From Anaerolineales bacterium (lineage in GTDB: Bacteria; Chloroflexota; Anaerolineae; Anaerolineales; UBA11579), in the NCBI GenBank assembly GCA_019637805.1, contig JAHBVB010000001.1:905875-969874 (forward strand): 64,000 nt of DNA. Direction: 5' to 3'. The notes under the pieces were generated by a model. The model had not been told where the DNA came from. It saw only the letters and a program-made list of their open reading frames with translations, and ran no database searches. The translations under genes and the position numbers were made by a program. Numbering within the stretch: position 1 is the first letter of the stretch; every line of letters starts with the position of its first letter. Below are positions 8,686-23,426 of the stretch, in pieces.

Positions 8686-11600
8686 TCAGGCCCGCATCAA
8701 TTGTTCCACGCGGCTTTCGCCCACGCTGTAGTACTTGGCCTCGGGGTGGTGGACGATGATCGCCGCGGTGGACTGCTCCGGGACCAGCTGGTAGGACTCG
8801 GTGAGCGACACGCCCAGTTCCTTTTCGGCGGGCAGCAGGTTCCACACTTTGGCGTGGTCTTCCAGTTCCGGGATGGCCGGGTAGCCCCAGGAGTAGCGCT
8901 TGCCGCGCTTGGCGTCCAGCCCCAACTCGCGGCGGATGTGGCGGTGCAGGTACTCTGCAGTGGCCTCGGCGGTTTGCACTGCCAGGCCGTGCAGGAAATA
9001 GCCTTCGGTGTAATCGTTGGCGGCCTGCAGCGCCTCAAAGCGCTCGCTGGCTTCCTGGCCTACGGTGACGACCTGGAAGGCGACGGTGTCCATGCGCCCG
9101 CTCTCTACGGGGGCGAAGTAGTCCGCCAGGCAGAGCAGGTCGCCGCTCTCTTGACGCGGAAATTCGAAGCGGGTCAACTCGCGCGGTTTGCTGCCGTCCA
9201 GGCTGGCCGGATCGTAGACGATCAGGCTGTCGCCTTCCGCCTGGGCGGGCCAGTAACCATACACGGCTTGCGGTTTCAGCCACCCGGTTTGGCGGGCTTC
9301 CTTCTGCATGCGGGCCAGGCGGGCCTCAAACTCGGCTTCGATCTGCTTCCATTCCTCGCCCTGTTTGTTCTTGGCGCCCCAGGAGAGGCGGAAAAGCTCG
9401 TTCTTGTACAGACACTCGAAGACAGTCTCCAGCGGCATCTGCGGCACCAGGTGCACGCCCCATTTGGGCGGCGTGGGGATTTGCTCGGCGGGACCCACTG
9501 CCGAGCGGCCGCCGACCGCTGCCGTACGGCGCGGCTTGGATTCGCGGGTCAGCTCGCGGGCAGCCTTGGTGAAGATATCTTCCATTAACAACTCGCGGCG
9601 CGGGCCATCGATCAGTTGGTCCATGGTTTCCAGGCCTTCGAAGGCGTCCTGACAGTAAAAGACGCCGGAGTGGTAGGGCTTCTGGTCTTCGGTGTAGAGG
9701 ATGCGCCAACCGAAGCGGCGGTTGATCGCCGCGCCGCCGATCAGCACCGGGTAGTCCAGGCCGCGGCGGTGCAGCTCGTTGATGATCAGCGGCATCTGCT
9801 TGCTGGTGCTGACCAGCAGGGCGCTGAGGCCGATGGCGGTGGCCTTGACCTCCTCCGCCTTGCTGATGATTGTCTCGGCCGGCACTTGTTTGCCCAGATC
9901 GAAAACTTCGTAGCCGTTGTTGACCAGAATGGTCTTGACCAGGTTCTTGCCGATGTCGTGCACGTCGCCGTAGACGGTGGCCAGGACCACTTTGCCCTTG
10001 CTGATGCCCTCGACCTTCTCCAGATAATTCTCCAGGTGGGCGACGGTCTTCTTCATCACTTCGGCGGACTGCAGCACGAACGGCAGGATCAGCTCGCCGG
10101 CGCCGAACTTGTCACCGACTTCTTTCATGCCCGGCAGCAAGGTGTTGTTCAGCAGGTGTACCGCGGCCTCATGGTCGTTGGGAAATTCCTTGCGGGCGAT
10201 GACTTCGTCGATGGCCGCTTCCACACCGTCTTTGTGGCGGTGCAAGATGCTCCAATGCAGGCGTTCCTCGGGGGTCATGCCTTCCATTGGGTTGGCTTTG
10301 GTCTCCTCTTCCACCGGGGCGCGTTGTTCGTAATACTCAATGACCTTTTGCAGCGCATCTGGACGCTTGTTGAAGATCAGGTCTTCCATCAGCTGGCGCT
10401 CTTCTGCCGGAATTTCGGCGTAGGGCTTGACCTTCTCCGCATGGACGATAGCCATGTCCAACCCGGCCTGCACGCAGAAGTGCAGCATCATGCTGTTCAG
10501 CGTTGCGCGGGCCTGGGGTGTCAGGCCGAAGCTGACATTGCTGACGCCCAGCGAGGTCATCACGCCTGGCAGCTCGGCCTTGATCTGGCGGATGGCGTTG
10601 ATCGTCTCCACGGCGCTGTTGTTGAATTCGGTGTCGCCGGTGCTGAGCGGGAAGGTGAGCACGTCGAAGACCAGGTCTTGCGGGCGGAAGCCGAATTCGT
10701 CCACGGCGATGTCGTGGATGCGCTTGGCGATCTCGAACTTGCGCTCGGCCGTCTTGGCCATGCCGGTTTCGTCGATGGTCAGGCACAGCACGGTGGCGTT
10801 GTGTTCTTTGGCGATGCTCAGCACGCGGTCCATCTTGGGCCGCCCGGCTTCCAGGTGGGTCGAGTTGAGCATGCAGCGGCCGGGGGCCAGCTTGAGGGCG
10901 GCTTCCATCACTTCCGGCTCGGTGGTGTCGATCACCAGCGGGGCCTCGACGCCCATGGCCAGCTTCTTGACCACCCTGGACATCAAATATTCCTCGTCTG
11001 GGCGCTCGGTGAGCGCCACGCTGACGTCCAACGTATGGGCGCCGCCAGCGATCTGCTCGCGGGCCATCTCAAGGATGCCGTCGAAGTCCTCGGCCATCAA
11101 TAGTCGTTTGAACTTGCGGCTGCCGGTGCCGTTGAGGCGCTCGCCGATCAGCAGCGGCGGCGGCTCCTGCTGCATGTCGACCGCCTGAATGGAGGAGGAC
11201 ATGCGCACCGGACCCTGTGTGGGCCGCGGCGGTGTGGGGTGGTTGTGGATCTTCTCAACCAGCAGGCGCAAATGCTCCGGCGTGGTGCCGCAGCAGCCGC
11301 CCACGATGGCGACATTGTGCTTGTGCACGAATTCGGCCATCGCCTCGGCGTAGGGTTCCGGTTCCAGCGGATAGACCGCCTCGCCGTCGACATTCAGCGG
11401 CAGACCGGCGTTGGGGATGGCTGAGACTGGCAGGCGGCTGTGCTCGCCCAGGTAGCTGACCGGTTGGCGCATGTGCTCCGGCCCGGTGGAGCAGTTGAGA
11501 CCGATGGCGTCGATCGGCAGCCCGTCCAGAATGGTCAGGGCGGTGGCGATGTCAGTGCCCAGCAGCATACGGCCGGTGGTGTCCAGCGTTACCTGGCACT

Positions 11601-12216
11601 GCACCGGGATGACTTCACCGGTCTCGTCGAAGGCGAGCTGGATGCCCTGGATGGCGGCTTTGACTTCCAAAATGTCCTGCGAGGTTTCGATCAGCAGGAC
11701 GTCCACGCCGCCGGTGATCAGACCCACGGCCTGCTCGCGGAAGAGGTCGACCAATTGGTCGTAGGTGATGTCGGAGAGGGTCGGGTCGTCGGCGCTGGGC
11801 AGTTTGCCGCTGGGGCCGATGGAGCCGGCCACGAAGCGCGGGTGCTCCGCCGTGCTGAACTCGTCAGCGGCCGCCCGCGCCAGGCGGGCGGCCGCCTGGT
11901 TGATCTCGATGGTGCGCTCGCCCAAGCCGTATTCGCCCAGCGTCAGGCGGTTGCTGCGGAAGGTGTTGGTCTCCACCACGTCCACACCGACTTCCAGGAA
12001 GGAACGGTGCACCACAGCCGGCGCCTCGGGATAGGTGATGTTGAGGTAGTCCGGGCAGCCGTTGTACTTTTCGCCGCCGTAGTGTTCAGCGGTCAGGTTC
12101 ATAGTTTGCAGGCTGGTGCCCATGGCCCCGTCGTAGATCAGGACGCGTTTTTCCAGCGCATCCAGGAAGGCGCGGCGGGTGTGGGGGCGGTAGGGGCTAA
12201 TTGGTTTTTCGGTCAC
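8686..12216 (-). CDS. metH: Cobalamin-dependent methionine synthase
   Basis: This full-length 1176-aa MetH transfers methyl from methyl-THF to homocysteine via B12. Modules in order: Hcy/zinc domain (about 15-330; YDGAMGTSLQTM, GLNCSTGPEH, GGCCGTTPEH), pterin-binding domain (about 360-620; IGERLNGTGSRKFKRL, GAHTLDVSVA), B12 cap and binding domain (about 660-880) with the DVHDIGKN motif carrying the cobalt-ligating His near residue 753, and a C-terminal AdoMet-dependent reactivation domain (about 935-1176). The start is GTG 12216. It is the first gene of the operon and lies directly behind the SAM-I riboswitch, whose promoter has been displaced by prophage insertion. Confidence 0.95.
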   Translation of the reverse strand: MTEKPISPYRPHTRRAFLDALEKRVLIYDGAMGTSLQTMNLTAEHYGGEKYNGCPDYLNITYPEAPAVVHRSFLEVGVDVVETNTFRSNRLTLGEYGLGERTIEINQAAARLARAAADEFSTAEHPRFVAGSIGPSGKLPSADDPTLSDITYDQLVDLFREQAVGLITGGVDVLLIETSQDILEVKAAIQGIQLAFDETGEVIPVQCQVTLDTTGRMLLGTDIATALTILDGLPIDAIGLNCSTGPEHMRQPVSYLGEHSRLPVSAIPNAGLPLNVDGEAVYPLEPEPYAEAMAEFVHKHNVAIVGGCCGTTPEHLRLLVEKIHNHPTPPRPTQGPVRMSSSIQAVDMQQEPPPLLIGERLNGTGSRKFKRLLMAEDFDGILEMAREQIAGGAHTLDVSVALTERPDEEYLMSRVVKKLAMGVEAPLVIDTTEPEVMEAALKLAPGRCMLNSTHLEAGRPKMDRVLSIAKEHNATVLCLTIDETGMAKTAERKFEIAKRIHDIAVDEFGFRPQDLVFDVLTFPLSTGDTEFNNSAVETINAIRQIKAELPGVMTSLGVSNVSFGLTPQARATLNSMMLHFCVQAGLDMAIVHAEKVKPYAEIPAEERQLMEDLIFNKRPDALQKVIEYYEQRAPVEEETKANPMEGMTPEERLHWSILHRHKDGVEAAIDEVIARKEFPNDHEAAVHLLNNTLLPGMKEVGDKFGAGELILPFVLQSAEVMKKTVAHLENYLEKVEGISKGKVVLATVYGDVHDIGKNLVKTILVNNGYEVFDLGKQVPAETIISKAEEVKATAIGLSALLVSTSKQMPLIINELHRRGLDYPVLIGGAAINRRFGWRILYTEDQKPYHSGVFYCQDAFEGLETMDQLIDGPRRELLMEDIFTKAARELTRESKPRRTAAVGGRSAVGPAEQIPTPPKWGVHLVPQMPLETVFECLYKNELFRLSWGAKNKQGEEWKQIEAEFEARLARMQKEARQTGWLKPQAVYGYWPAQAEGDSLIVYDPASLDGSKPRELTRFEFPRQESGDLLCLADYFAPVESGRMDTVAFQVVTVGQEASERFEALQAANDYTEGYFLHGLAVQTAEATAEYLHRHIRRELGLDAKRGKRYSWGYPAIPELEDHAKVWNLLPAEKELGVSLTESYQLVPEQSTAAIIVHHPEAKYYSVGESRVEQLMRA

Positions 12217-12235: not shown

Positions 12236-12260
12236 GTCGCCTCTCATGTTGAGAGGCGAC
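12236..12260 (-). promoter_or_regulatory. Expression-platform hairpin of the SAM-I riboswitch
   Basis: A perfect 10-bp hairpin (GTCGCCTCTC/GAGAGGCGAC, 5-nt loop) lies between the aptamer and the metH GTG. The P1 3' strand continues into GAGGCGA, which can pair with TCGCCTC of this hairpin's 5' arm, giving the mutually exclusive pairing expected of a riboswitch. There is no U-tract after the hairpin, so it may act on translation or by Rho rather than as an intrinsic terminator. Confidence 0.6.
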
Positions 12261-12281
12261 CAGTAGTACGGAACTTATCGC

Positions 12282-12378
12282 CTCATCTCTCAGAACAATC
12301 TGCCGGAATTGGCACCTGCCGCAATTGCGGCGGTTGCCGAGGCTTCAAAGGGCCGGTCCCTCCACCTCTCTGGATGAG
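12282..12378 (-). promoter_or_regulatory. SAM-I (S-box) riboswitch aptamer of the metH operon
   Basis: Reading the minus strand, P1 is CTCATC (12378-12373) with GATGAG (12287-12282). Between them are the conserved S-box segments CCAGAGAGGTGGAGGGA, CCGGCCC, TTTGAAGCC and CGGCAACC, then the AGGTGCCAATTCC half and TGAGAGATGAG. These match the SAM-I kink-turn, pseudoknot and SAM-binding core. The aptamer is complete on this side only because the phage att core (12359-12379) rebuilds its first 20 nt. The integrase stop codon (TGA 12347-12345) is the UGA of the conserved UUUGAAGCC segment. Expected logic: high SAM lowers expression of metH, the MTHFR fusion and the aldo-keto reductase. Confidence 0.92.
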
Positions 12379-13889
12379 TTGCCTATAGACACATCAATAG
12401 GCCAAACGTATTTAATTCTTGCGATTATACCGTCTCTTGAGCGGGATACAGCAACCTGGTGCACCAGGTTGCGGATGATGTGTTTGTTTTGCTGGGGATT
12501 GGCCAGGAGCTTGGATTTGAGCTCTTGGCTCAGGGCCGGGATGTTGATCTGAGCCAGACCATCGGCGGATTGGAGCCTGCCTTTCTCCTGGCGGATCTGT
12601 TCCTGCAGCTGGGGTAAATGGGTTTCCAGCTGGCGGACCTCGTCGAGCATGGCGGTGCTGTGGCCCAGCTCTGCGATCGCTTTTACCAGGTTGGCGAGGC
12701 GGTTTTTGGTTGTTTGCAGATCTTTCCGCAGGCGGTTGAGGTGATGTTCGTCCTTGCCGGCGGCCAGCTTTTGGCCGACACGTGCGGTGATCTCACTGAG
12801 GTTGGCTGGCGCCAGGATCTCGTCGACGAGGGTGGAGAGAACGGCCTGCTCGAGCAGATCTGCCCGGATCATGCGGCAGCCAGGGCCGGCGACGCGGTTT
12901 TTGTTGGCCTGGCAGCGATAGTAGGAGTAGCCCTGGCTGTGATCATGGCGGTTACGACTGCGCGAGCCGACCATGCTGGTCTGGCAGTCCAGGCAGAACA
13001 CCAGGCCGGAGAGGATCAGGGAGCTGCCGAGGATGCGCGGGTGGGTGCGGTTTTTGACCCGGTCGCTGGCTAGATGGCTGATTGCTTGCACGGCGTCCCA
13101 GGTTGCCTGGTCAACGATGGGGTCGCAGTAGTTTTCCACGATGGTTTGGTTGGCGCCTTTGCCGATCACGAGGTGGCCAATGTAGAGCTGGCGGCGAAAC
13201 ATCTTTGAATAGCCATTGCGTGAGGTGTGCAGCTGCAATTTTTTGTGGATCGATTTGATGGTGGCGCCAGCGGCGCGCATGCGAAAGGCCTCGGCAACCA
13301 GGGGTGCGGTGTTTGGATCGATCACCGGCCGGTAGCCTGTGTGTTGGCTGCCGTCGCGGCGCTGGCCGACATTGACCAGCTCGCGGCGAAAGCCGATGGG
13401 GGCGCGATGCCCGGGGAGGATGCCGTATTCCCGGGCAACAAAGTGCAGACCGCGGCGAATGTCGGCGGAAAGATCCTCGCGGAAGCGCTGGCTCATCCAG
13501 TCAATGGCGGCCTCGAAGAGGCGGCCGTCGGCCCCCTCTGGGATGCTGTCGTTGAGGGAATGGATGGAGTAGCCGCGCCGGCGCAGGTCCGCTTTATAAA
13601 ATTGGGCGTCGTCGAAATCGCGGGCGAAGCGGTTGAACCTCCAGAGCACCAGACCGTGGTCTGTGCAGTCGGGCGATCGCAAATGTTGGAGCATGGCCTC
13701 AAAGGCCGCCCGGCCGACAGTGGAGCCACCAGACACGGCCTCGTCGCGAAAGATGGCGGTGAGCTGGTGGCCGCGCTGGTCGCACCATTCGCGAATGGCG
13801 GCCTCTTGCTGCTCGAGGGAGAGATCTTGTTCTGTGCCGCCGCTGTCACGCAGGTAGGCGACCAGGCGTGCGCGAGGCGGCAGGCTCAT
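12345..13889 (-). CDS. int: Large serine recombinase (phage integrase)
   Basis: A 514-aa large serine integrase. The resolvase-type catalytic domain (about 1-150) has the Y-x-R-x-S motif with nucleophile Ser16 and the downstream conserved arginines (LVLWRFNRFARD). A recombinase domain follows (about 165-290), then a zinc-ribbon domain with CLDC and a second Cys pair (YYRC, GPGC) and a coiled coil (about 385-455) needed in this family for att synapsis and directionality. The final codons run through the att core into the host riboswitch, so the lysogen protein ends GPAL. In the circular phage the same frame would continue past the core as AHTHTFRIVK and stop at 51040-51038. There is no terminator between its stop and metH. 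Confidence 0.95.
   Translation of the reverse strand: MSLPPRARLVAYLRDSGGTEQDLSLEQQEAAIREWCDQRGHQLTAIFRDEAVSGGSTVGRAAFEAMLQHLRSPDCTDHGLVLWRFNRFARDFDDAQFYKADLRRRGYSIHSLNDSIPEGADGRLFEAAIDWMSQRFREDLSADIRRGLHFVAREYGILPGHRAPIGFRRELVNVGQRRDGSQHTGYRPVIDPNTAPLVAEAFRMRAAGATIKSIHKKLQLHTSRNGYSKMFRRQLYIGHLVIGKGANQTIVENYCDPIVDQATWDAVQAISHLASDRVKNRTHPRILGSSLILSGLVFCLDCQTSMVGSRSRNRHDHSQGYSYYRCQANKNRVAGPGCRMIRADLLEQAVLSTLVDEILAPANLSEITARVGQKLAAGKDEHHLNRLRKDLQTTKNRLANLVKAIAELGHSTAMLDEVRQLETHLPQLQEQIRQEKGRLQSADGLAQINIPALSQELKSKLLANPQQNKHIIRNLVHQVAVSRSRDGIIARIKYVWPIDVSIGNSSREVEGPAL
12359..12379. repeat. attL core (direct repeat shared with attR)
   Basis: The 21-bp segment beginning CCTCCACCTCTCTGGATGAG is repeated exactly at 51070-51090, and identity ends abruptly on both sides. 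Left of it is the 3' part of the riboswitch; right of it is phage DNA encoding the integrase tail. Confidence 0.92.
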
Positions 13890-13893
13890 GGCG

Positions 13894-14310
13894 CTAGTGG
13901 CAGTTGGCCAGGATGGCCAGAGCGGCGTAGTTCTGGGATAGCTGGATGACCTGGGCGCCGAAGATGGCCTCGTTGGCCATTAAGTTTTGCTGGTTGATGT
14001 TCTCGGCTCGTGTGTAGACCCCGGTTTGATAGAGGTTCTCCAGGCTGGTGATCCGACTGTTGCCCTGAAGGATCATGCTTTGGGCGGCTTCGATGGTGTC
14101 CTGGCAGGCTTCACTGGGTTTTTCGAAGACCGGCAGATACAAGCCGACTGCAATGGCGGCGAGCAGCAGGATGACGAGCACTCGATAGATTTTGTCTGAC
14201 AAGGGTTTCCTCCGCTTAGGTTTCATGTTGTGCAACAGTTCGCTGCGGTCTGCAGGATGGGTTTCCGCCCAAATGGTTGCCCAGCGCTCCCGCATCTCCG
14301 CCCGCTTCAT
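13894..14310 (-). CDS. Small membrane protein in the lysogeny module, SOS-box controlled
   Basis: A 138-aa protein of unknown function. A basic N-terminus (about 30-42) precedes one transmembrane segment (about 45-62, VLVILLLAAIAVGLYLPV), followed by an extracytoplasmic helical region of about 75 residues with two cysteines (EACQD, ANCH). It lies 4 bp upstream of int and is co-oriented, so the two are probably cotranscribed. A perfect 10-bp inverted repeat with a GAAC-N4-GTTC core lies 7 bp before the start codon. A role in superinfection exclusion or in a damage-induced step is possible, but nothing in the protein decides it. Confidence 0.65.
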   Translation of the reverse strand: MKRAEMRERWATIWAETHPADRSELLHNMKPKRRKPLSDKIYRVLVILLLAAIAVGLYLPVFEKPSEACQDTIEAAQSMILQGNSRITSLENLYQTGVYTRAENINQQNLMANEAIFGAQVIQLSQNYAALAILANCH

Positions 14311-14316
14311 GCTCGC

Positions 14317-14340
14317 AGTTTAGAACGAGTGTTCTAAACT
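14317..14340. promoter_or_regulatory. LexA-type SOS box
   Basis: Perfect inverted repeat AGTTTAGAAC-GAGT-GTTCTAAACT. Its core GAAC-N4-GTTC is the LexA operator of Gram-positive-type SOS systems. Position just before the 13894-14310 start codon suggests repression of that gene and possibly int until DNA damage. Confidence 0.6.
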
Positions 14341-14353
14341 GTCAAGAGGGCTG

Positions 14354-14758
14354 TCATGGGGTTGATTTGCCTTTGCGTTTCTCGCGCAGGCGGGCCAGCT
14401 CTAGTTCTGCGCGCTCCAGGAGCTCAGCGCGCTCTTCGTCGCTGGCAGCCTGGTCAAAGATGTGCAGCCATTGGCGCTCGTCGTCGCTGATCTCGCCGCG
14501 GGCCGGCAGGACGCCGGCTTTGTCAAATACGAGCTCGGGCGGCACATCGAAGGCGCGGGCGATCTCTTTTAGGGCCTCGGGGCCAGGTCTGCGCAGTCCG
14601 GAGAGCAGCCTTGAAATATGTGTCTGGGAGATTTGTGTGCGCCTGGCCAGGTAGACAGCAGTCCAACCACGCTCGGAGAGCTGGGCCTGAAGCCAAGTGG
14701 AGAAAGACCGGTCGGTTGCCATAAGGTGAGAGAAAGATACCTGCAGGTTAGTTGCCAT
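14354..14758 (-). CDS. XRE-family phage repressor (CI-like)
   Basis: A 134-aa HTH_3 protein. The helix-turn-helix (about 25-75) reads AVYLARRTQISQTHISRLLSGLRRPGPEALKEIARAFDVPPE, quoted here as overlapping helix 2, turn and recognition helix features. A short acidic/helical C-terminus (about 95-134) probably dimerises; there is no LexA-like peptidase domain. ATG 14758 is chosen; ATG 14722 (MATDRSF) is an alternative. Neither has a good ribosome site, and a TATATT box ends about 10 nt before 14758, so a leaderless mRNA is possible. It faces away from the early operon across an operator region, as expected for the lysogeny repressor. Confidence 0.82.
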   Translation of the reverse strand: MATNLQVSFSHLMATDRSFSTWLQAQLSERGWTAVYLARRTQISQTHISRLLSGLRRPGPEALKEIARAFDVPPELVFDKAGVLPARGEISDDERQWLHIFDQAASDEERAELLERAELELARLREKRKGKSTP

Positions 14759-14779
14759 GGGGTTTCTAATATATGCCTA

Positions 14780-14808
14780 TTGACATATTTTGCCGGGTAA
14801 TGTATATT
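14780..14808 (+). promoter_or_regulatory. Early rightward promoter (PR-like)
   Basis: TTGACA (14780-14785), a 17-bp spacer and TATATT (14803-14808). It points into the Cro-like gene and early operon. Confidence 0.8.
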
Positions 14809-14822
14809 GCCAATTGGCAATA
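14805..14822. promoter_or_regulatory. Palindromic operator overlapping the early promoter
   Basis: The 18-bp perfect palindrome TATTGCCAATTGGCAATA covers the -10 box and start region of the early promoter and abuts the AGGAGA ribosome site. A related half-site, TATTGACA, lies at 14778-14785 over the -35. It is the likely binding site of the 14354-14758 repressor and/or the Cro-like protein. Confidence 0.75.
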
Positions 14823-14834
14823 GGAGAAGACCAC

Positions 14835-15080
14835 ATGGCATATGGACAACAAGCAAAAGCTGCCTTGGTTGAGTGGGCAGAAGCGAACGGCGTAACGCCG
14901 GCCGAATTCCGTGAGAAGACGGGCTGTAGCTACATGCATGCGTGGAAGCTCCTTCGCGGTAACAAGTTCCCTACTAAAGACACAGTCGCCCGCCTGTTGG
15001 CGGCGTATGGCCCGGCGCCGGCGCAGCTGGTGTCTGATGCGCTACAGGGCGTTGGGCCGGCCGTGCAGCAAAAACCCTAG
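14835..15080 (+). CDS. Cro/CII-like small HTH protein
   Basis: An 81-aa protein with a helix-turn-helix-like core (about 20-62: TPAEFREKTGCSYMHAWKLL, then KFPTKDTVARLLAAYG). It is the first gene of the rightward early operon and starts at ATG 14835 behind AGGAGAAG, directly after the operator palindrome. Divergent from the CI-like repressor, it is in the cro position and probably acts as antirepressor or lytic regulator. Confidence 0.7.
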   Translation: MAYGQQAKAALVEWAEANGVTPAEFREKTGCSYMHAWKLLRGNKFPTKDTVARLLAAYGPAPAQLVSDALQGVGPAVQQKP

Positions 15081-15130
15081 CACGGAACTCTCAATCGTTG
15101 GAGTTTTTAGCCGTAAGGCGAGGAGGAATG

Positions 15131-15529
15131 ATGTCTAGCAGTACGCAGACCCCTATCTACACGACCCCATTGGAGCAGTTGATCAGGACCCGAATTGAGG
15201 AAAAACGGGAGAACCGAACAGTGGGGGCGCAAGTCGGCCGCAGTGAGCTGACCATGGCAGTGATTGCCTGGTTCGAGGTGGAGCTGGGCGTGAGCCTAAC
15301 CCCTGGGCTGACGCTGAGGTTGATCGGCGCCGATTTGGACATGTTCCATGTGGAGATCCATCTAGGTCCGGGCGCACTGGTGCGCAGTGAGCATTGTTAT
15401 CGCTACTCGGGCGGCGGCATGGGTGCCGCGTCCCAAATTCGATGGATCGGCATCTCGACCCAATACGGCCGCGGCTTGTTCGGCGATTTCGTCGATGCGG
15501 CCGCGTTTGCGATGGCGGGAGTGCGATGA
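15131..15529 (+). CDS. Small early phage protein, unknown
   Basis: A 132-aa protein not recognised. The start at ATG 15131 has AGGAGG five bases upstream; ATG 15128 would be too close. It contains a VGRSELTMAVIAWFEVELGV segment and a Gly-rich centre, with no catalytic motif visible. The stop overlaps the next start (ATGA), so it is translationally coupled to the tyrosine recombinase. Confidence 0.6.
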   Translation: MSSSTQTPIYTTPLEQLIRTRIEEKRENRTVGAQVGRSELTMAVIAWFEVELGVSLTPGLTLRLIGADLDMFHVEIHLGPGALVRSEHCYRYSGGGMGAASQIRWIGISTQYGRGLFGDFVDAAAFAMAGVR

Positions 15530-16440
15530 GCCCGGCCTGGAGTATTGACTTTGCCGCGTTCCTGCGGGAGCGTGAGGACCGGAGCGAGCGCACATTGGCG
15601 GCGTACTGCGGTGCGCTGCGGATCTTCGCCGCCTGGTTTGAGGCAGCGTACGGCCGGCCGTTTGCGCCGGCCGAGCTGACGGCCCGCGATGTGCGGGCCT
15701 ATCGCCACGAGTTGCAAGAGGTGCGCGGCCTGGCCGCCTCGACGATCAACGTGGCCCTGGCAGCGCTGAGAGCGCTGGCGCGCTGGGCGATGGCCAGCGG
15801 CGCCTTGACGAGCAACCCGGCGGCCAGTGTGGCCTTTGTGGAGCCGCCGCCGGCGGAGCCGCGCTGGATGACGCGCGGGGAGCTGAGCCGGCTGTTGGCC
15901 GAGTATGAGCGGGCGATCCATGATGCGGCGGCCCGCGGCGCCCAGGAGCGGCAGAGCCAGGCGACGCGTGACCTGGCGGCGGTGGCCTTGATGGCCGGGG
16001 CCGGCCTGCGGGTATCTGAGGCCTGCGCCCTGGACCTGAGCGATGTGCAGCTGGGCGAGCGCAGCGGCCAGGCGATGGTGCGTTTTGGCAAGGGGCGCCG
16101 GCAACGCCGCGTGCCGCTGAGTGCCGAGGTGCGCCAGGCGCTGGACAGTTGGATCCAGCTGCGCGGGGATGCGGATGGGCCGTTGTTGCTGGCCCAGCGT
16201 GGCGGCCGCCTGGGCCCGCGTCAGGTGGAGCGGGTGTTCGAGGAGCGCGCCCGGCGGGCGCGGCTGGAGGGCTATACACCTCACTCGCTGAGGCATACGT
16301 TTGTCAAGCGGGTGGTGGAGGCCAGCGACCTGGCCACGGCCAAAGAACTGGCCGGCCACCGGCAGATCCGCACGACGGCGCGCTATGCGGCGCCGAGCAA
16401 GCAGGAGCTGGCGGCGGCGGCTGAGGGGGTGCTGCTGTGA
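15526..16440 (+). CDS. Tyrosine recombinase (XerC/D-like)
   Basis: A 304-aa site-specific recombinase. A SAM-like N-terminal core-binding domain (about 5-95) is followed by the catalytic domain with all expected residues: Arg162 (AGLRVSEACAL), Lys189 (FGKGRR), His253 and Arg256 (TPHSLRHTF), His278 (AGHRQI) and nucleophile Tyr287 (TTARYAAPS). It appears intact. It sits in the early operon, not beside an att site, while a separate serine integrase flanks attL. It may resolve genome multimers or act on another site rather than integrate the phage. Confidence 0.92.
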   Translation: MSPAWSIDFAAFLREREDRSERTLAAYCGALRIFAAWFEAAYGRPFAPAELTARDVRAYRHELQEVRGLAASTINVALAALRALARWAMASGALTSNPAASVAFVEPPPAEPRWMTRGELSRLLAEYERAIHDAAARGAQERQSQATRDLAAVALMAGAGLRVSEACALDLSDVQLGERSGQAMVRFGKGRRQRRVPLSAEVRQALDSWIQLRGDADGPLLLAQRGGRLGPRQVERVFEERARRARLEGYTPHSLRHTFVKRVVEASDLATAKELAGHRQIRTTARYAAPSKQELAAAAEGVLL

Positions 16441-16802
16441 GTCGCTGGAGCGGGCTGCACCCGCATGCCCGGCACGCCCGCCGGCGAGCCAAGCAGCGCT
16501 ATGGCGCCAGCGCGGCGGATGTGAGAACGCTGGAGGGCTGCATCCACATGGAGGCGGGGATCGTGCGCCGCCTGCAGCAGAGCCACAACCGGATGCTGTA
16601 CGAGATCCGGGCGCTGGGGCGCAGCTGGTATGCAATCTATTCGCGGCGCAGCCAGCTGATCGTGACGCTGCTGGCGCCGCAGGATGGCGAGCGGCTGTTT
16701 GCGCGGGCGGAGGAGACCCCGCGCTGTGAGATCTGCGGGTGCATGCTGGCCAATGTGCGCAATAAGCGCTGGTGCACGGTGTGCTGGCAGGAGCGCCGGT
16801 GA
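16437..16802 (+). CDS. Small basic protein with C-terminal zinc ribbon
   Basis: A 121-aa protein starting at GTG that overlaps the recombinase stop (GTGA). Its N-terminus is very basic (HARHARRRAKQRYG), a helical middle contains HMEAGIVRRLQQSHNRMLYE, and the C-terminus has two Cys pairs (CEICGCML, then WCTVCWQ) likely to bind zinc. It was probably made for nucleic-acid or protein binding during early infection. No family is recognised. Confidence 0.6.
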   Translation: MSRWSGLHPHARHARRRAKQRYGASAADVRTLEGCIHMEAGIVRRLQQSHNRMLYEIRALGRSWYAIYSRRSQLIVTLLAPQDGERLFARAEETPRCEICGCMLANVRNKRWCTVCWQERR

Positions 16803-16975
16803 GCCGAGTGCTGGAGTTCGACCTGGTGGTGGAAGTGCTGCCGCTGCCGGCGGAGCGGACGGCCGCCTGGGAGGCGGCGATGCAGGCGCTGGCGGAGTTG
16901 ATCGTAACGGCGGCGATGGCGGCCGGGGAGCAACCGGATGGCGAGACCGTCGAACCAGCGCACGCGGCGGCGTGA
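16799..16975 (+). CDS. Small early phage protein, unknown
   Basis: A 58-aa acidic helical protein. GTG start overlaps the preceding stop by 4 bp, and the reading frame is retained only by this operon context. It has no recognised domain. Confidence 0.45.
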   Translation: MSRVLEFDLVVEVLPLPAERTAAWEAAMQALAELIVTAAMAAGEQPDGETVEPAHAAA

Positions 16976-17168
16976 CCGCATCGAGGAGGTGCGCTTCGCG
17001 CTGGGCACCCTGGCCGGCCATTTGCGGATGGTGCGCCTGCGGCTGGAGCAGGCCCGCCGGGTGCCGGGGTTGAGCGCGGTGCTGGGGCCGGGCTTGGATG
17101 CGGCCGACAAGATGGATGCGGCGCTGGCCCGGGCCGGAGCGGCGCTTAAGAAGTTGGAGCAGGAATAG
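16938..17168 (+). CDS. Small basic helical phage protein, unknown
   Basis: A 76-aa protein with a basic N-terminus (RPSNQRTRRRDR) and long amphipathic helices (about 14-74). The start overlaps the end of the previous gene by 38 bp. It may bind DNA or another early protein; there is no recognised family. Confidence 0.5.
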   Translation: MARPSNQRTRRRDRIEEVRFALGTLAGHLRMVRLRLEQARRVPGLSAVLGPGLDAADKMDAALARAGAALKKLEQE

Positions 17169-17270
17169 GTGCTGGGTAGTCGGCCGGCCATCAGCCCGGA
17201 GTTGCGCCGAGGCTGGGTTGGTGGTTGGCCGACTGTGCGGCACAGGCTGCACAGAGGACAGGAGGCTGAG

Positions 17271-17624
17271 ATGCAGGTGATCGAGGCGACAGCGCGGCTG
17301 ACCAGTGAGCGGCATGCGCAGGTGCTGAGCCCGGAAGGCCGGTTGTTGGGCTACCGGGCGCGCATTGATTGGGCGGCCGGCCCGCGGCTGAGCCGGCGCA
17401 AGTTCAGCCGGGCGCGGGCGGCGGCGCTGTACCAGCGCCAGTTGCTGGTGCGCTATGAGGATCTGCGGGCCGCGGCGGGGCTGGGCGCGTTCAAGGTCTA
17501 CCTGGTGTGGGGCAGCGGCTACCGCTTGCTGCGCCGGCGGATGCGCTCGCGGGCGGAGGCCGAGCAGTACAGCTGGGCAGTGCCGTTGCGGTTGGGGCGG
17601 CTGAAGGCGGTGGCTGAGCCATGA
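17271..17624 (+). CDS. Small early phage protein, unknown
   Basis: A 117-aa basic protein. ATG 17271 follows a strong AGGAGG site, so the upstream in-frame GTG at 17169 is not used. The middle is Arg-rich (AGPRLSRRKFSRARAAALYQ). The stop overlaps the next gene (ATGA). No family is recognised. Confidence 0.55.
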   Translation: MQVIEATARLTSERHAQVLSPEGRLLGYRARIDWAAGPRLSRRKFSRARAAALYQRQLLVRYEDLRAAAGLGAFKVYLVWGSGYRLLRRRMRSRAEAEQYSWAVPLRLGRLKAVAEP

Positions 17625-18052
17625 TCTGCGAGTATTGCGGCCGGCGGCCAACCCGCCAGGAGCAGGAGTTCTGCCGAGGCTGCGGTGCGCCGGTGGTGGC
17701 GGCTGAGCTGCGCGTAGAGGTCCGCCAGAGTAGGGAGTACCTGGTCTGGTCCGTTGAGCGTCTGGCGGCGTTGATGGTCGAGCCGGTGGGTCCCGACTCC
17801 ATTGGCCAAGAAGCTCTTATGTACAAAGGCCGACTAATGAGCGAGCTGAGCAAGGAAGAGTTGCGCAGTGCGTTCGAGTCGCCAGATCGGCCAGCATTCA
17901 TTCTCCCTCCCGATGCTTATCGGTTTGTGAAGGAGATCGAGCGCCAGCTGGAGAGAGGCGAGGCGGAGCAAGGGCCGCCCATTGGAGTGATCACGTACTC
18001 GCTGCCCAGGTCCCTTTGGCAGCGGTTTTGGGATTGGCTGAGGGGTTGGTAA
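17621..18052 (+). CDS. Zinc-ribbon early phage protein
   Basis: A 143-aa protein with an N-terminal double-zinc-ribbon-like motif (MICEYCGRRP then FCRGCGAP, Cys at about 3, 6, 20 and 23). A helical, mixed-charge C-terminal part follows and ends in a Trp-rich tail (LWQRFWDWLRGW). The function is unknown; zinc ribbons of this kind usually bind nucleic acid or mediate protein contacts. It overlaps the previous gene by 4 bp. Confidence 0.6.
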   Translation: MICEYCGRRPTRQEQEFCRGCGAPVVAAELRVEVRQSREYLVWSVERLAALMVEPVGPDSIGQEALMYKGRLMSELSKEELRSAFESPDRPAFILPPDAYRFVKEIERQLERGEAEQGPPIGVITYSLPRSLWQRFWDWLRGW

Positions 18053-18124
18053 GCGCCAGGCCAAAAAACTGGAACCCCCAGTCGACCTGGGACTGGAAAC
18101 ACCCCTAGAAACGAGGTCAGAAAC

Positions 18125-18646
18125 ATGTCAGAAATTGTTGTGCAGGGCAAACCCTCATCGCCCTACCGGGCCTATAAAGAACTGGCCCCCCAGGCCCCAT
18201 TTGCCCTTAGGGAGCTGATCGCCGCGCTGGGCTATCCGGTGGAGGAGAAGGCGGGTGGGGCGGTGTACGTTGCTGTGGAAACGCTGGGCCAGATCGCCGA
18301 GGAGTTGAGCGAGATGGTGGGCCAGAGCCCAGCTTGGGGTTGGCGCTATTTGCATGGAGTGCTGAATCAGAAGCAGGCGGCCTCGGCCAAGCTGACCCAG
18401 GCGATCTTCGCCTGGGGGGCGGTGGTGGACGGGATGCCGGCGGTGATGGCCAATACGCAGGATGTGGTGGTGCGGGCCCAGCCCGGGCAGCTGCACCCGG
18501 GGGCGGTGGTGCTGGCGGCCAGCCGGCGCTGCCGGACCTGCCGGGTGGCGTTTGTGCCGCGGGTGCCGTGGCAGCGGTGGTGCACGTCGAAGTGCAGAGG
18601 CAGGTCAGAGGGCGGAGGTGTGAAGTTGGAGGTGGGCGGTGGCTGA
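18125..18646 (+). CDS. Early phage protein with C-terminal Cys4 motif
   Basis: A 173-aa protein. The region at about 25-115 is helical and could hold a DNA-binding fold (ALRELIAALGYPVEEK, LNQKQAASAKLTQAIFAW). The C-terminus has four Cys (CRTC and CTSKC) spaced as a zinc finger. It is the first gene after a 72-bp gap, so may have its own translation start region. No named family. Confidence 0.55.
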   Translation: MSEIVVQGKPSSPYRAYKELAPQAPFALRELIAALGYPVEEKAGGAVYVAVETLGQIAEELSEMVGQSPAWGWRYLHGVLNQKQAASAKLTQAIFAWGAVVDGMPAVMANTQDVVVRAQPGQLHPGAVVLAASRRCRTCRVAFVPRVPWQRWCTSKCRGRSEGGGVKLEVGGG

Positions 18647-18914
18647 GGCATTTACGGACGCTGAATTGGTTGATGCTGAGCTGAAGTCGCGGCTTTCCCC
18701 GAGCACCTACGATCTGGTGTGCAAATGGCGGAATGAGGCGGAGCGCTGGCCCAGCGTGTGGGCGAGGAGAACAAGGCTTTTTGCTTGCGGCTGCAGCAGC
18801 ACGCGGATTGAGGTTTACCGACTGCGGGAAGATTTGGCGCTGTGCCCCGCTCATCAGTCGCCGCTGGTTAGCGCTTCGGAGCATAAAGAATATGGGCAAG
18901 GCGGGCCAAGGTGA
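18639..18914 (+). CDS. Small early phage protein, unknown
   Basis: A 91-aa protein starting at GTG 18639 behind GGAGGTGGGC and overlapping the previous stop. It has three Cys (CKW, ACGCS) but no regular finger. Function unknown. Confidence 0.5.
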   Translation: MAEAFTDAELVDAELKSRLSPSTYDLVCKWRNEAERWPSVWARRTRLFACGCSSTRIEVYRLREDLALCPAHQSPLVSASEHKEYGQGGPR

Positions 18915-18965
18915 CCCGGCGCCGGCTGTTCGCTATCGGCTTCACCATCGGGCTGGGGCAGTTGT

Positions 18966-19385
18966 ATGGCTCCTGAGTTGGTGCCGGCGCCGCTGGCCGG
19001 GTTGGAGATCCGCTTCTCCCGCGAGCAGCAGCGCTATTACCTGGCCAATCGTTGGGTGATCGGCCGCCATGTGTATGGCGGTGCCTATTCACAGAGCTGG
19101 ACGGAGGCGGACAGGCGCGCCTGGCTGGAGGGATTGCTGGCCATGTGCCTGTTTGACGTGCGCGCAGATCTCTATCGGCTGCAGCCAGTGGTCAGCGATC
19201 TGGCGTTCCGGGCCGTGGTGGCTTCCCTGGGCTCCCTGCTGCATAAGACGACAATCACGGTGATGCTGGCGGAGCTGGAGGCGCAGGTGGCCTTGTGGTG
19301 CCAGTTGGAGTATGCCGACTTGAAGCTGGCGGACCTGTCGGTGTTCAGTCCCTGGCACGGCGTGGATAAAGGACGGGGCGCATGA
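18966..19385 (+). CDS. Early phage protein, unknown
   Basis: A 139-aa, largely helical protein with aromatic N-terminal segments (FSREQQRYYLANRWVIGRHV). No motif recognised. It is the last small gene before the primase leader region. Confidence 0.55.
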   Translation: MAPELVPAPLAGLEIRFSREQQRYYLANRWVIGRHVYGGAYSQSWTEADRRAWLEGLLAMCLFDVRADLYRLQPVVSDLAFRAVVASLGSLLHKTTITVMLAELEAQVALWCQLEYADLKLADLSVFSPWHGVDKGRGA

Positions 19386-19677
19386 CTCCGGCCGAGCCGC
19401 CGCCGGAGCGATAGGCCGGCGCGCCGCCATCCACCGCCCTGCGGCCCGGAAGTGATTCGCCGCCGCTGGTGGGTAGGAAGTCAGTAGCAGGGAAATTCCC
19501 AACCTACCCCATATCCCCCCTGGCGGGGTCGACGTGGGGGAAAACGCGTTTCGGCGGGGGTTCCCCCTGGGGATGGGATAGGTCGCACAAATGCTTTTGT
19601 GCGACGTTTATTGGCGGGCGGCACGGCTGGGCAACGGCCGGGCGGCCCGAATAAGAGGCAGGAATTAGGTCGCATAA
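19386..19677 (+). promoter_or_regulatory. Leader region of the primase gene with hairpin and direct repeat
   Basis: No gene is supported in this 292-bp gap. It contains a perfect 10-bp hairpin, GTCGCACAAA-TGCT-TTTGTGCGAC (19582-19605), inside the sequence TAGGTCGCACAAATG (19579-19593). That 15-mer recurs with one change as TAGGTCGCATAAATG at 19666-19680, whose last three bases are the primase start codon. This suggests an operator or an RNA control site for the replication genes. Confidence 0.5.
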
Positions 19678-22425
19678 ATGACGAACGCGGTAGACATCGA
19701 GGCCATCAAACAAGCCAACCGGATCGAGGACCTGGTGGAGGAAGCCGGCTTCCGGCTGGAGGGGCGGGGCCGCTATCGGCGCTGGAGCCAGCACGGCTCG
19801 TTTGTGGTGGATACGGGCAATCAGTCTTTCCACGACAACCACAACCAAGTGGGCGCCGGCCTGCCTGACCGTGGCGATATTGTGGACTGGGTGTGTTGGT
19901 GGAAGAAGGTGCAGTTCAAAGACGCCATCGAGTTCCTGGCGCGGCGGGCGGGCATGGAGTTGCCCGACCGCTGGGCCGGGGACAACGAGGTGCGGCTGGC
20001 GGCCCGGGCTAAGGAGGACGCGCTGACGGTGATCTGCCGGCGCTATGTGCAGCGCCTGTGGCGGACGCACGCGGCGCTGACGTATGCCCGGGGGCGGGCC
20101 TGGGACGATGAGGCGATCAAGGCGGCCGGGCTGGGATACACGGGCTCGGGCGACCGTGAGGAGGCCGACGAGCTGCGCAAGGACCTGGAGGCCAACCTGG
20201 TGGACCCGGAGAGCCCGGGGGCGGTGTCGCTGCTGGGCTATACGGGCGACGTGGCGGCCTGGGGGCGCAAGCACCAGGTGGAGGTGGACCCGGCCTGGGT
20301 GCAGGCGGGGCGGATCCCCGGGGCGCCGAAGGGGATGCTGGTCTACCCGCACGTGGCTGGCGGGCGGGTGGTGTACGTGAGCTTCCGGGGCATCAGGGAG
20401 AAGCGGCACCACAACCTGCCGGCGGCGCTGGCTGGACCCAAGCAAGCCTATCGCAATGCGGTCTGGGCGCCACAGGCGGAGAGCGTGGTGGTGGTGGAGG
20501 GGCAGGCGGACGCAGTGAGCCTGGGCGCCATGGGCCAGGCAGCGGTGGCGCTGGCCGGCAGCCACGTGAGCGAGGATCTGCTGCGCCAGCTGCGGGGCCA
20601 CGAGACGGTGTACCTGGGCCTGGACGTGGACACAGAGGGCGGGGCGGTGGCGGCCAAGGCCGGCGCCCAGCTGGCAGCGGCCCTGGGGCCGCTGGTGCGC
20701 CTGGTGCGCTGGCCGCAGGGCAACGACGCCAACGCCTGGCATCAGGCGTTGGCGGGGGAGCAGGTTGCGGTTGAAGCGCAAGCGGCCGCGCTGCGGTCGA
20801 CGCTGCTCAAATCGCCAACACTCGTGGAGGATTTGGCCGCTCAGGTGGGGGCGATGGATGGAGCGGAGCGAGCCAAAGCTATGAAGGATGTGATGGCGAT
20901 GGTAGCCCAGCTGGACGGTAGCGACCGAGCGCAGCTGCGGTCCAAGCTCGCAAAATTTCTGGGCGTAAATGTGCGGGATTTTGGCCACATGCTGGCTGAG
21001 ACCGAGAAGCTGCTGCTGGCCAGCGTCGATGAGGGCGAGGAAGGCGAGGTGGAGACGGCCGGCGGCTATATCAAGGGCTGGCTGGTGGACCTGCTTTACG
21101 ATCCAGAAAAGCAGCGCACATTTTTTGCCTACCGGGATCCGGACGGGAAGATCGACACGGCGACTCAGCTGGAGATTGAGGGAACCACTTACAAGCCGCT
21201 TTTGCCCGACGATCTACTGCTGAAAGGTGTGGTGGTGCTGCCCTCGGCGCTGGGTGGTGGGCTGAGTGAGAGCGAGCTGGTGGCCAGGATTGTGGCGCTG
21301 GTGCTGCGCTACTACCTGATCGATGAGTTCTACGCTCGGCTGCTGGCTTATTACGTGATGTTCACCTATCACTTCGACAGTTTCCGCTCACTGGTCTACC
21401 TGCGAGTGCTGGGTGACTTCGGCAGCGGCAAAAGCCGCCTTCTGTGGATGGTGGGCTATTTGAGCCGGCGGCTAATCAAGTTAACCGGTGCCACCACGGA
21501 AGCATCCCTATTCCGGATTATGGACCGCTACAAGGGGACCCTGGTGATCGACGAAGCCGACCAGGCAGAGTCTGACCTAGAAGATACGCGCACGAAGTTG
21601 ATGAACCAGGGGAACCAGCGGGATCTGATGGTTGTACGCCAGCAAGACGATGGGCGGGGTGGCTATAAAAGCGTGGCCTTTGATGTGTATGGGCCGAAGA
21701 TTTTGGCCACGCGGCGGCGCTTTCAGGACGAGGCCCTGGAAAGCCGCTGCCTGACGTTGGAGACGATCAAGCACAGTAGCGCTGAGCTCAAATCTCGGGG
21801 GATCCCTTTCGAGCTGAATCGGGCGTTTGACTCAGCGTGCGCCGAGCTGCGTAACGAGCTGCTGCTGTTCCGCTTGAAAACCTGGCTGCCTGACCGTGAG
21901 GTGGCGCCCGACCTGGCGGATGAGCACGTACAGGCGCGGCTGAACCAGGTGATGATGCCTGTCAAAGAGATTATCTCGGACCCCGTTGTGCGCGAGGAGA
22001 TCACCCAGCTGACGCGGCGCTACCAGCAACGCATGGTGACCGAGCGCAGCATGGAGGTGGAGGCCAAGGTGCTGCAGGCGATCGTGGAGATCTGGCAGGC
22101 CGGCCCGGTGACCGAGAAAGAGGGCAAGGCAATCGAACCCTACTACGATCTGAGCATGGGCAACATCGCCAAGATGGCCAACCGGGTGATTGACCAGGAG
22201 AATGCCGACCCGGATGAGGAGGGAGAGGACGGCGAGGAAGGCGGGGGCAACCCAAACCGAAAAAAGCTGACTTCGCGGGGTGTGGGGTCGTATCTGAAAA
22301 ACAATTTGAACCTGCAGTCGGAGAAGGCCAAGAACGGCCCGTTGAAAAGTAAGTACGTGCTGGTGTGGGAAGAGGAGCGCATCCGAGGGCTGTGCGCCGA
22401 ATACGGCGTGGAGATTGACGGGTGA
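19678..22425 (+). CDS. TOPRIM primase fused to an AAA-type helicase
   Basis: A 915-aa replication protein. The N-terminus (about 10-90) has the layout of a CHC2 primase zinc domain (RGRYRRW, NQSFHDNHN, DRGDIVDWV) but lacks its Cys ligands. A TOPRIM domain follows: VVVVEGQADAVS near 270-281 and LGLDVDTEG near 313-321 supply the Glu and Asp metal ligands. The C-terminal half is a P-loop ATPase with Walker A GDFGSGKS (about 580) and Walker B LVIDEAD (about 622). It probably unwinds the origin and primes synthesis for the phage polymerase at 28057. A highly acidic patch (about 840-858) precedes the C-terminus. Confidence 0.85.
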   Translation: MTNAVDIEAIKQANRIEDLVEEAGFRLEGRGRYRRWSQHGSFVVDTGNQSFHDNHNQVGAGLPDRGDIVDWVCWWKKVQFKDAIEFLARRAGMELPDRWAGDNEVRLAARAKEDALTVICRRYVQRLWRTHAALTYARGRAWDDEAIKAAGLGYTGSGDREEADELRKDLEANLVDPESPGAVSLLGYTGDVAAWGRKHQVEVDPAWVQAGRIPGAPKGMLVYPHVAGGRVVYVSFRGIREKRHHNLPAALAGPKQAYRNAVWAPQAESVVVVEGQADAVSLGAMGQAAVALAGSHVSEDLLRQLRGHETVYLGLDVDTEGGAVAAKAGAQLAAALGPLVRLVRWPQGNDANAWHQALAGEQVAVEAQAAALRSTLLKSPTLVEDLAAQVGAMDGAERAKAMKDVMAMVAQLDGSDRAQLRSKLAKFLGVNVRDFGHMLAETEKLLLASVDEGEEGEVETAGGYIKGWLVDLLYDPEKQRTFFAYRDPDGKIDTATQLEIEGTTYKPLLPDDLLLKGVVVLPSALGGGLSESELVARIVALVLRYYLIDEFYARLLAYYVMFTYHFDSFRSLVYLRVLGDFGSGKSRLLWMVGYLSRRLIKLTGATTEASLFRIMDRYKGTLVIDEADQAESDLEDTRTKLMNQGNQRDLMVVRQQDDGRGGYKSVAFDVYGPKILATRRRFQDEALESRCLTLETIKHSSAELKSRGIPFELNRAFDSACAELRNELLLFRLKTWLPDREVAPDLADEHVQARLNQVMMPVKEIISDPVVREEITQLTRRYQQRMVTERSMEVEAKVLQAIVEIWQAGPVTEKEGKAIEPYYDLSMGNIAKMANRVIDQENADPDEEGEDGEEGGGNPNRKKLTSRGVGSYLKNNLNLQSEKAKNGPLKSKYVLVWEEERIRGLCAEYGVEIDG

Positions 22426-22429
22426 ACAG

Positions 22430-22940
22430 GCCGGTGGACGTGGTGGATGTAGTGGACGTTGGCCGATTTTACGGCGCCGGACTACTGCTGGCTGATGCAG
22501 GGGCACGGCGGAGGCGGAATTTACCCGTAATTGGTGGAGGTAGTGGACGTAGTGGACGTCCATGCGGGGATGATGGATATGTTTTGTCGTCGCGGAGAGA
22601 GGCCCATTTACGGGTAATTGCAAGCATCTGCGCCGGTGGATGTGTAGCACTTAGTGTCTGTTTAACCGCGAAAGACGAAAAAAAGGGCCTTGGCGACGTG
22701 GCTCCTGCTGCTTCTGGTGGACGTCGCGCGCGCGACGTCCACCGAATCGACCGCGACGTCCACCGCGCGGGGGATTCGAGGCGCGATTCGGGACCAGGCG
22801 GGGCGAGCGGCGCGACGCTGGGAATGGCAAACGCGCGCGATTTAGATAAAGGGCTGCGCCCAAGAAGGACGCGGCTATGCGCAAATCAAACAGGGGCTGG
22901 GGGTATGTACGTCCCCTACGTCCCCTATGTCCACCGCGGG
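22430..22940. other. Iteron/palindrome region, candidate phage replication origin
   Basis: No credible gene lies in 22426-22985. Three arrays of three tandem 9-mers with consensus GTGGACGTA occur at 22434-22460, 22534-22560 and, inverted, 22908-22934. A 28-bp perfect palindrome built on GGTGGACGTCGCGCG lies at 22716-22743, and its right arm CGCGACGTCCACC recurs at 22753-22765. A further inverted pair, TTACCCGTAA (22521-22530) and TTACGGGTAA (22608-22617), lies between the arrays. Repeated binding sites directly after a primase-helicase gene are typical of replication origins; origin function is inferred. Confidence 0.55.
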
Positions 22941-22985
22941 CGGTTGTTCGCGGGATATGGCACAAGCGAAAGGCAGGGTTGAGTT

Positions 22986-23426
22986 ATGGCGGATGAGCGT
23001 GTGAAAACCGGAGAGGTTGGCTTTTGCCCGCACTGCGGTGAGGTAGCGGATGTGGTGGTGCCGGCGGGGGACCGGCTGCAGGCGCGATTGCTGGCGGCGA
23101 ATGCCCGGCTTTGGTCCCGAATGCCGCCCGTGCCAGGTTTCAGCGGCACGGGAACTGCACGTGTGGGCCGCACCAGGCTGGCTGGAGCAATCGCGATCCT
23201 GGGGGGAGCGAGCGAGAACGCTGTGAAGATTATCAGGAAGGCGGGCTACCGGCCCCTGTGTAGCTCGGAACTGGAGGCCCTGTGTATGTGTCTGAGCGAA
23301 ATGCAGGCCGAGCTGGTCGAGGCAGAGGAAGCCCTGCGGGAGTTGCTGGGCGAGCCGGTGGACCTACTCCGACTGGCGACAGAGTGCCGAGAGTCGACGT
23401 TTGCAGGTGAGGGTGGCGATGACTGA
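22986..23426 (+). CDS. Phage protein with single CxxC motif, unknown
   Basis: A 146-aa protein starting at ATG 22986. A CPHCGE knuckle near residue 14 may be half a zinc site. A helical, acidic C-terminus (about 95-146) includes LEALCMCLSEMQAELVEAEE. No family is recognised. It is the first gene after the iteron region. Confidence 0.55.
   Translation: MADERVKTGEVGFCPHCGEVADVVVPAGDRLQARLLAANARLWSRMPPVPGFSGTGTARVGRTRLAGAIAILGGASENAVKIIRKAGYRPLCSSELEALCMCLSEMQAELVEAEEALRELLGEPVDLLRLATECRESTFAGEGGDD

What the first reader, a model, noticed from the sequence alone, without database searches (positions are those of the whole stretch)
12282..12380. Prophage integrated inside a SAM-I riboswitch (attB is the aptamer)
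The 21-bp att core at 12359-12379 and 51070-51090 is the 5' strand of the S-box aptamer controlling metH. Joining host DNA across the two cores restores one S-box leader: promoter (51155-51127), P1 strand, then the aptamer 3' half (to 12282). Phages commonly use tRNA or tmRNA genes as attB; a conserved riboswitch is an unusual target. Because the core carries the whole 5' P1 strand, the phage rebuilds the aptamer on the metH side, much as tRNA-targeting phages rebuild the tRNA. I know of no earlier description, but cannot search.
Basis: partly seen in the sequence, partly recalled or inferred. Interest (0 to 1): 0.94.

Follow-up and report, generated by a model that had tools for sequence, protein, structure and literature searches.

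The report
Prophage inserted in a SAM riboswitch
A bacterial virus has inserted its DNA exactly at the start of a SAM-sensing RNA switch in front of a methionine-synthesis gene, leaving the sensor sequence whole but moving its promoter 38.7 kb away, so that the gene is likely transcribed from viral DNA; two other viral insertions, in distantly related bacteria, abut the same spot of the same kind of switch.

Summary
A 38.7-kb prophage in an Anaerolineales-type genome lies between two exact copies of a 21-bp core (12359-12379, 51070-51090). One copy is the 5' strand (P1 and J1/2) of a full-length SAM-I aptamer upstream of metH (RF00162, 88.4 bits). A sister species carries the empty site, and the S-box promoter conserved among relatives is stranded at 51155-51127. 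Related prophages with a similar tyrosine recombinase sit elsewhere, while the DNA-binding half of their serine integrase differs, so the serine integrase probably sets the site. Its relatives insert in tRNA genes, one with a 22-bp core, so this is RNA-gene targeting with rebuilding, moved to a riboswitch. Searching viral contigs gave two further cases. A Paenibacillus-type prophage with a tyrosine integrase has a 15-bp core equal to the SAM-I P1 5' strand at both ends. A Listeria provirus abuts the metK S-box at the same point, with only one junction seen. Nine paper searches found no riboswitch described as attB. What transcribes the gene in the lysogen is unproven. This is a new variant of a known kind: a riboswitch aptamer used, apparently repeatedly, as a phage attachment site.

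The parts
12280..12380 (-). SAM-I (S-box) riboswitch aptamer of metH, complete, at the attL side
   Evidence: RF00162 88.4 bits, model 1-108/108
12359..12379 (.). 21-bp att core at the metH side; carries the whole P1 5' strand of the aptamer
   Evidence: exact repeat
51070..51090 (.). 21-bp att core at the promoter side
   Evidence: exact repeat
12359..51069 (.). prophage element, 38,711 bp from core to core
   Evidence: core spacing; phage genes; empty site in G010
12345..13889 (-). large serine integrase, 514 aa; its last codons are read from the aptamer
   Evidence: PF00239, PF07508, PF13408; phrog_95; translation
15394..16440 (+). tyrosine recombinase, second recombinase of the phage, probably not the one that sets the site
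   Evidence: PF00589; conserved in sister prophages at other sites
8686..12216 (-). metH, cobalamin-dependent methionine synthase
   Evidence: S-methyl_trans, Pterin_bind, B12-binding, Met_synt_B12 domains above cut-off
12236..12260 (-). hairpin between aptamer and metH, probable expression platform; several relatives have a T run after it, the window does not
   Evidence: sequence and alignment
51127..51155 (-). stranded S-box promoter TTGACA-17-TATACT
   Evidence: conserved in relatives
51014..51039 (.). phage inverted repeat with T run (terminator-like), between the stranded promoter and the phage genes
   Evidence: 12-nt perfect arms; not listed by the terminator scan
12424..12429 (-). TATAAT in phage DNA upstream of the aptamer; poor -35, unproven as a promoter
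   Evidence: no promoter-like site in the scan
31625..33175 (+). terminase large subunit
   Evidence: phrog_38 1.3e-88
33189..34694 (+). portal protein
   Evidence: phrog_12
48614..50086 (+). endolysin
   Evidence: phrog_291

Best explanation
A 38.7-kb prophage lies inside the SAM-I riboswitch leader of metH, between two copies of a 21-bp core that is the 5' strand of the aptamer, so the aptamer is whole on the metH side while its promoter is 38.7 kb away, and the phage's serine integrase likely put it there. The integrase is inferred to recombine attP, at its own 3' end, with the P1/J1-2 DNA of the S-box leader. Because the core carries the whole P1 5' strand, recombination leaves a complete aptamer on the coding side, as tRNA-targeting phages leave a complete tRNA. 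The host promoter then reads into the phage end, where it would be stopped by a terminator-like repeat. metH is predicted to be transcribed from phage DNA (integrase read-through or a promoter in the integrase 3' end), with SAM control in cis kept. Shown: core, aptamer, phage genes, empty site, promoter displacement. Inferred: which recombinase, and where transcription starts. Untested: that the aptamer works in the lysogen and that the phage excises. Other prophages use the same spot, so the S-box P1 strand appears to be a recurrent attB, probably because it is conserved and can be rebuilt.
For: Aptamer and core; phage genes. Empty site in G010. Of 301 sampled genomes of the order, 102 hold CTCATCCAGAGAGGYNGAGG and only G000 has two copies on one contig, 38,711 bp apart; G015 has two on different contigs. 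In 13 aligned relative leaders TTGACA is kept in 12 and TATACT in 11, 17 bp apart, upstream of the aptamer (13 of the 17 loci with an RF00162 hit). Serine integrase versus G003 and G002: residues 1-150 122/150 and 99/148 identical, residues 281-514 71/227 and 51/218; the tyrosine recombinase is 82% and 66% identical in the same prophages, of which one splits an SU10-type capsid gene and one lies between tRNA-Leu and a PF04227 gene. Relatives L075 (40%), L076 (37%), L012 and L013 (26-27%) have integrase frames that end inside tRNA genes; the L075 prophage has a 22-bp tRNA-Arg core at both ends. Second case: L101/L135, 15-bp repeat TCTTATCAAGAGTAG at both ends of a 71-kb record, one copy in a SAM-I aptamer, tyrosine integrase at one end, promoter-like TTGACG-17-TAAAGT on the far side; 0 of 5000 resamples reach 15 bp. 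Third case: L142, SAM-I 79.1 bits at the edge of a Listeria provirus, 96.1% identical over 180 nt to the L. monocytogenes metK leader; 168 of 174 positions agree downstream of the P1 start and 37 of 118 upstream.
Against: The window's prophage is a single case: no other among the 301 genomes sampled from the order and no exact core in IMG/VR. The phage also encodes a tyrosine recombinase. No promoter-like site passed the scan on the phage side; those of cases 2 and 3 are at shuffle level. Integrase relatives with no SAM-I in the fetched locus: 11 of 11 viral loci and 18 of 18 genome loci scanned (14 of the 29 other class-level loci and 4 of the 13; the rest were only searched for the S-box motif). 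Case 3 shows one junction only and no integrase next to the missing end is in the record; the case 2 aptamer is cut by the contig end (model 1-96 of 108).
Confidence: 0.86

Rival explanations
1. The tyrosine recombinase at 15394-16440, not the serine integrase, integrates the phage; the serine enzyme has another role.
For: The 21-bp core is of the length usual for tyrosine integrases (recalled); case 2 has a tyrosine integrase at the same spot; the G552 relative with a 22-bp tRNA core carries a tyrosine recombinase too, 36% identical.
Against: The tyrosine recombinase is 82% and 66% identical in sister prophages that sit at other sites, while the DNA-binding half of the serine integrase is the part that differs. 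The att core overlaps the serine integrase 3' end here, and the frames of four relatives end inside their tRNA targets.
Confidence: 0.1
2. The riboswitch is incidental: the phage recognises a DNA site upstream of metH that happens to overlap the aptamer, and regulation is simply lost.
For: Sister prophages of this phage use an intergenic site and a protein gene, so this phage group does not need RNA targets.
Against: Two other prophages abut the same P1 5' strand of SAM-I; the aptamer remains complete at 88.4 bits, against 87.3 in the empty site of G010.
Confidence: 0.2
3. The junctions are assembly or binning errors.
For: The genome is a five-contig assembly of unnamed origin.
Against: Both junctions lie within one 1.16-Mb contig with exact cores; the sister genome gives the expected empty site; two independent records show the same architecture.
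Confidence: 0.02

Closest known systems
Phages and islands integrated in tRNA or tmRNA genes
   Same: Conserved structured-RNA gene as attB; the core carries one strand of a stem, so the RNA is whole on one side. Relatives of this integrase sit in tRNA genes.
   Different: Target is a cis-acting riboswitch aptamer in a leader; the 5' rather than the 3' part is in the core, so promoter and aptamer are separated.
Large serine recombinase prophages (phiC31, Bxb1, A118 type; recalled)
   Same: Resolvase, Recombinase and zinc-ribbon domains; attP at the 3' end of the integrase gene.
   Different: Long 21-bp core within an RNA element; the examples I recall mostly target protein genes with short cores.
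S-box (SAM-I) riboswitch, RF00162
   Same: Complete aptamer, upstream of a methionine gene, hairpin after it.
   Different: 5' neighbour is phage DNA instead of its own promoter.

Membership tests
SAM-I riboswitch RF00162 | Covariance model score above the gathering cut-off over the full model | tested here: met
   88.4 bits against 44.4, positions 1-108
SAM-I riboswitch RF00162 | Located upstream of a methionine or SAM gene, conserved in relatives | tested here: met
   metH; 17 of 20 relative metH loci scanned have RF00162; 9 further metH loci were not scanned
SAM-I riboswitch RF00162 | SAM binding and SAM-dependent control in the lysogen | not testable with these tools
   needs RNA work
Prophage | Structural, packaging and lysis genes bounded by att repeats, with an empty site in relatives | tested here: met
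Large serine recombinase | Resolvase catalytic domain plus Recombinase and zinc-ribbon domains | tested here: met
   PF00239, PF07508, PF13408 above cut-off
Large serine recombinase | It is the enzyme that made this insertion | tested here: inconclusive
   comparative evidence for; attP symmetry not significant
RNA-gene-targeting integration with restoration | Core carries the stem strand needed to leave the RNA complete on the coding side | tested here: met
   CTCATC of P1 lies in the core; aptamer complete at attL
RNA-gene-targeting integration with restoration | RNA keeps its own promoter on the coding side (usual in tRNA cases, recalled) | tested here: not met
   promoter lies at 51155-51127 beyond the phage

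The most novel reading that the evidence does not exclude
SAM-I aptamers are a recurrent, convergent class of phage attachment site: phages with serine and with tyrosine recombinases, in Chloroflexota, Paenibacillus and Listeria, insert at the P1 5' strand, regenerate the aptamer, cut it from its promoter and so take over transcription of methionine and SAM genes (metH, and metK in Listeria) while leaving the SAM feedback sensor in place.
Probability: 0.55. Interest if true: 0.88.

Novelty: new variant of a known kind. Interest (0 to 1): 0.8.

Why it matters
It would extend RNA-gene-targeted integration from tRNA, tmRNA and other stand-alone RNAs to a metabolite-sensing leader, where insertion changes gene control rather than only preserving an RNA. 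It predicts that lysogeny swaps the promoter of methionine or SAM synthesis genes under an unchanged sensor, which can be tested by transcript mapping, and it gives a new place to look for prophages: the 5' P1 strand of conserved aptamers.

Tried and rejected
Rejected: misassembly (sister empty site, one contig). Rejected as support: L100 (SAM-I beside a transposase-like gene with HTH_38 and rve domains, with a promoter-like stretch of its own by eye) and L155 (SAM-I 72.2 bits at the end of a 6.5-kb fragment whose genes look phage-like by eye, no integrase seen). The 'Listeria phage', 'Staphylococcus phage' and 'Bacteriophage sp.' records have no annotation; the three that I opened are marked unverified; none was counted as a phage. 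Of the 28 loci, 24 lack the S-box flanks by eye; 4 of these 24 (L097-L099, L102) were scored with Rfam without a hit and 20 were not scored. Six of the seven new loci had no RF00162 hit. No exact core in IMG/VR. The attP dyad test for the serine integrase was not significant. The exact att cores of G003 and G002 were not found; one search gave only 12-13-bp repeats at implausible places. Promoter scans on the phage side were near or below shuffle level. One search used a pattern with too strict spacing and found nothing. No empty site for case 2 was found: I had no Paenibacillus genome at hand, and one search gave none in the plasmid collection.

Full report
What is there. The minus strand at 12280-12380 is a full-length SAM-I aptamer (88.4 bits, model 1-108) upstream of metH (8686-12216). 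Its 5' part, ACTCATCCAGAGAGGTGGAGG, is a 21-bp sequence present exactly twice in the window, at 12359-12379 and 51070-51090. Between the copies lie phage genes: serine integrase, DNA polymerase, terminase, portal, head morphogenesis and endolysin, primase and a ParB-like protein, and a tyrosine recombinase. The element is 38,711 bp. The host is an Anaerolineales-type bacterium: same-genus genome G003 holds a contig identical, over the part fetched, to JAHCIH010000011.1, named so in its record.

Empty site. Sister genome G010 (metH 98% identical) has the right-hand host genes, the core and the metH leader in one piece; its aptamer scores 87.3 bits. In all, 17 of 20 relative metH loci scanned carry RF00162 upstream (9 further loci not scanned). 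Eleven of the 29 relative metH loci hold the 21-mer exactly (some loci are cut by contig ends). Of 301 genomes sampled from the order, 102 hold the 20-nt variant pattern and only G000 holds it twice on one contig. In 13 aligned relative leaders (of the 17 with an RF00162 hit) the promoter TTGACA-17-TATACT lies upstream of the aptamer, with TTGACA kept in 12 and TATACT in 11. In the window this promoter is at 51155-51127, on the far side of the prophage.

Geometry. The P1 5' strand CTCATC lies wholly in the core, so the aptamer at attL is complete, with phage DNA only from its first base outwards. The last codons of the integrase are read from the aptamer: the protein ends ...SSREVEGPAL in the lysogen and would end differently, at 520 aa, in the excised phage. 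On the other side the host promoter reads through the core into the phage end, which has a 12-nt inverted repeat with a T run at 51014-51039 (the terminator scan did not list it).

Which recombinase. Two related prophages of the same genus were found through the terminase (G003 87%, G002 64%). Their tyrosine recombinases are 82% and 66% identical to the window's, yet they sit elsewhere. The G003 prophage splits an SU10-type major capsid gene of what seems to be another phage: the left part matches profile positions 94-292 (137.4 bits), the right part positions 2-57 (23.1 bits, just under the cut-off of 24.1). The G002 prophage lies between tRNA-Leu and a PF04227 gene (psuG by recall), a gap that is short in relatives. 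Their serine integrases share residues 1-150 with the window's (122/150 and 99/148) but much less of residues 281-514 (71/227 and 51/218). G002 keeps the exact core at its own metH, where its prophage is not. More distant relatives of the serine integrase have frames ending inside tRNA genes (L012, L013, L075, L076). The L075 prophage (G552) has a 22-bp tRNA-Arg core at both ends, 51.4 kb apart. So a long RNA-gene core at the integrase 3' end is not peculiar to the window, and the serine integrase most likely sets the site. Against this, the attP arms are not significantly symmetric (66 of 1000 shuffles), and G552 also has a tyrosine recombinase (36%).

Other cases. Four SAM-I patterns were scanned through the viral contigs, giving 0, 6, 8 and 28 loci with overlaps. 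Four loci proved to be RF00162: L100 and L101, L142 and L155; 20 loci were excluded by eye only. L101 belongs to a 71,333-bp record with a tyrosine integrase at the other end and the 15-bp repeat TCTTATCAAGAGTAG at record positions 103 and 71236, the latter being the P1 5' strand of the aptamer; 0 of 5000 resamples reach 15 bp. The far side has TTGACG-17-TAAAGT, though such sites occur at shuffle frequency there. The attP reads TCTTATC-AAGAGTA-GATAAGA, a perfect 7-7-7 dyad, the form I recall for tyrosine integrase cores. The integrase is 92% identical to one of Paenibacillus taichungensis. L142 is the edge of a provirus. Its first 180 nt are 96.1% identical to the metK leader of L. monocytogenes; from the start of P1 downstream 168 of 174 positions agree, upstream 37 of 118. 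Only this junction is in the record: the other end stops after a repressor-like gene. L100 and L155 do not show a prophage junction.

Function. The gene downstream must be transcribed from phage DNA if it is expressed through the aptamer. In the window the integrase points towards metH, with no minus-strand terminator-like site in 12200-12700, and a TATAAT with a poor -35 lies in its 3' end. For cases 2 and 3, promoter-like sites face the aptamer but at shuffle frequency. metK is essential in many bacteria (recalled), so the Listeria case implies some phage-side transcription. None of this is shown.

Literature. Nine searches (listings and abstract starts) and passages on 'riboswitch' in five papers (PMC6002521, PMC2222628, PMC4046660, PMC7643969, PMC4907049) gave no integration into a riboswitch. 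The library lacks most subscription journals and bioRxiv as such.

Noticed in passing
L115-L117 (G003:C3), about 4300-30650: A related prophage splits an SU10-type capsid gene of what seems to be another phage, a nested insertion.
   Followed up: partly
L075 and L176-L179 (G552:C33:121110 and 172464): Serine-integrase prophage in tRNA-Arg(CCT) with a 22-bp core and an additional 18-bp partial copy at 121049.
   Followed up: partly
window 12345-13889 with G003 and G002 relatives: Serine integrases share the catalytic half but differ strongly after about residue 150, as if the DNA-binding half had been exchanged.
   Followed up: partly
L155:6425-6530: A full SAM-I aptamer (72.2 bits) at the end of a short, phage-like fragment; origin unclear.
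   Followed up: no
L100:194-285: SAM-I aptamer beside a transposase-like gene (HTH_38, rve) in a record classed as viral.
   Followed up: no
window 24447-26048: ParB-like partition protein in the prophage, which may point to a plasmid-like stage.
   Followed up: no
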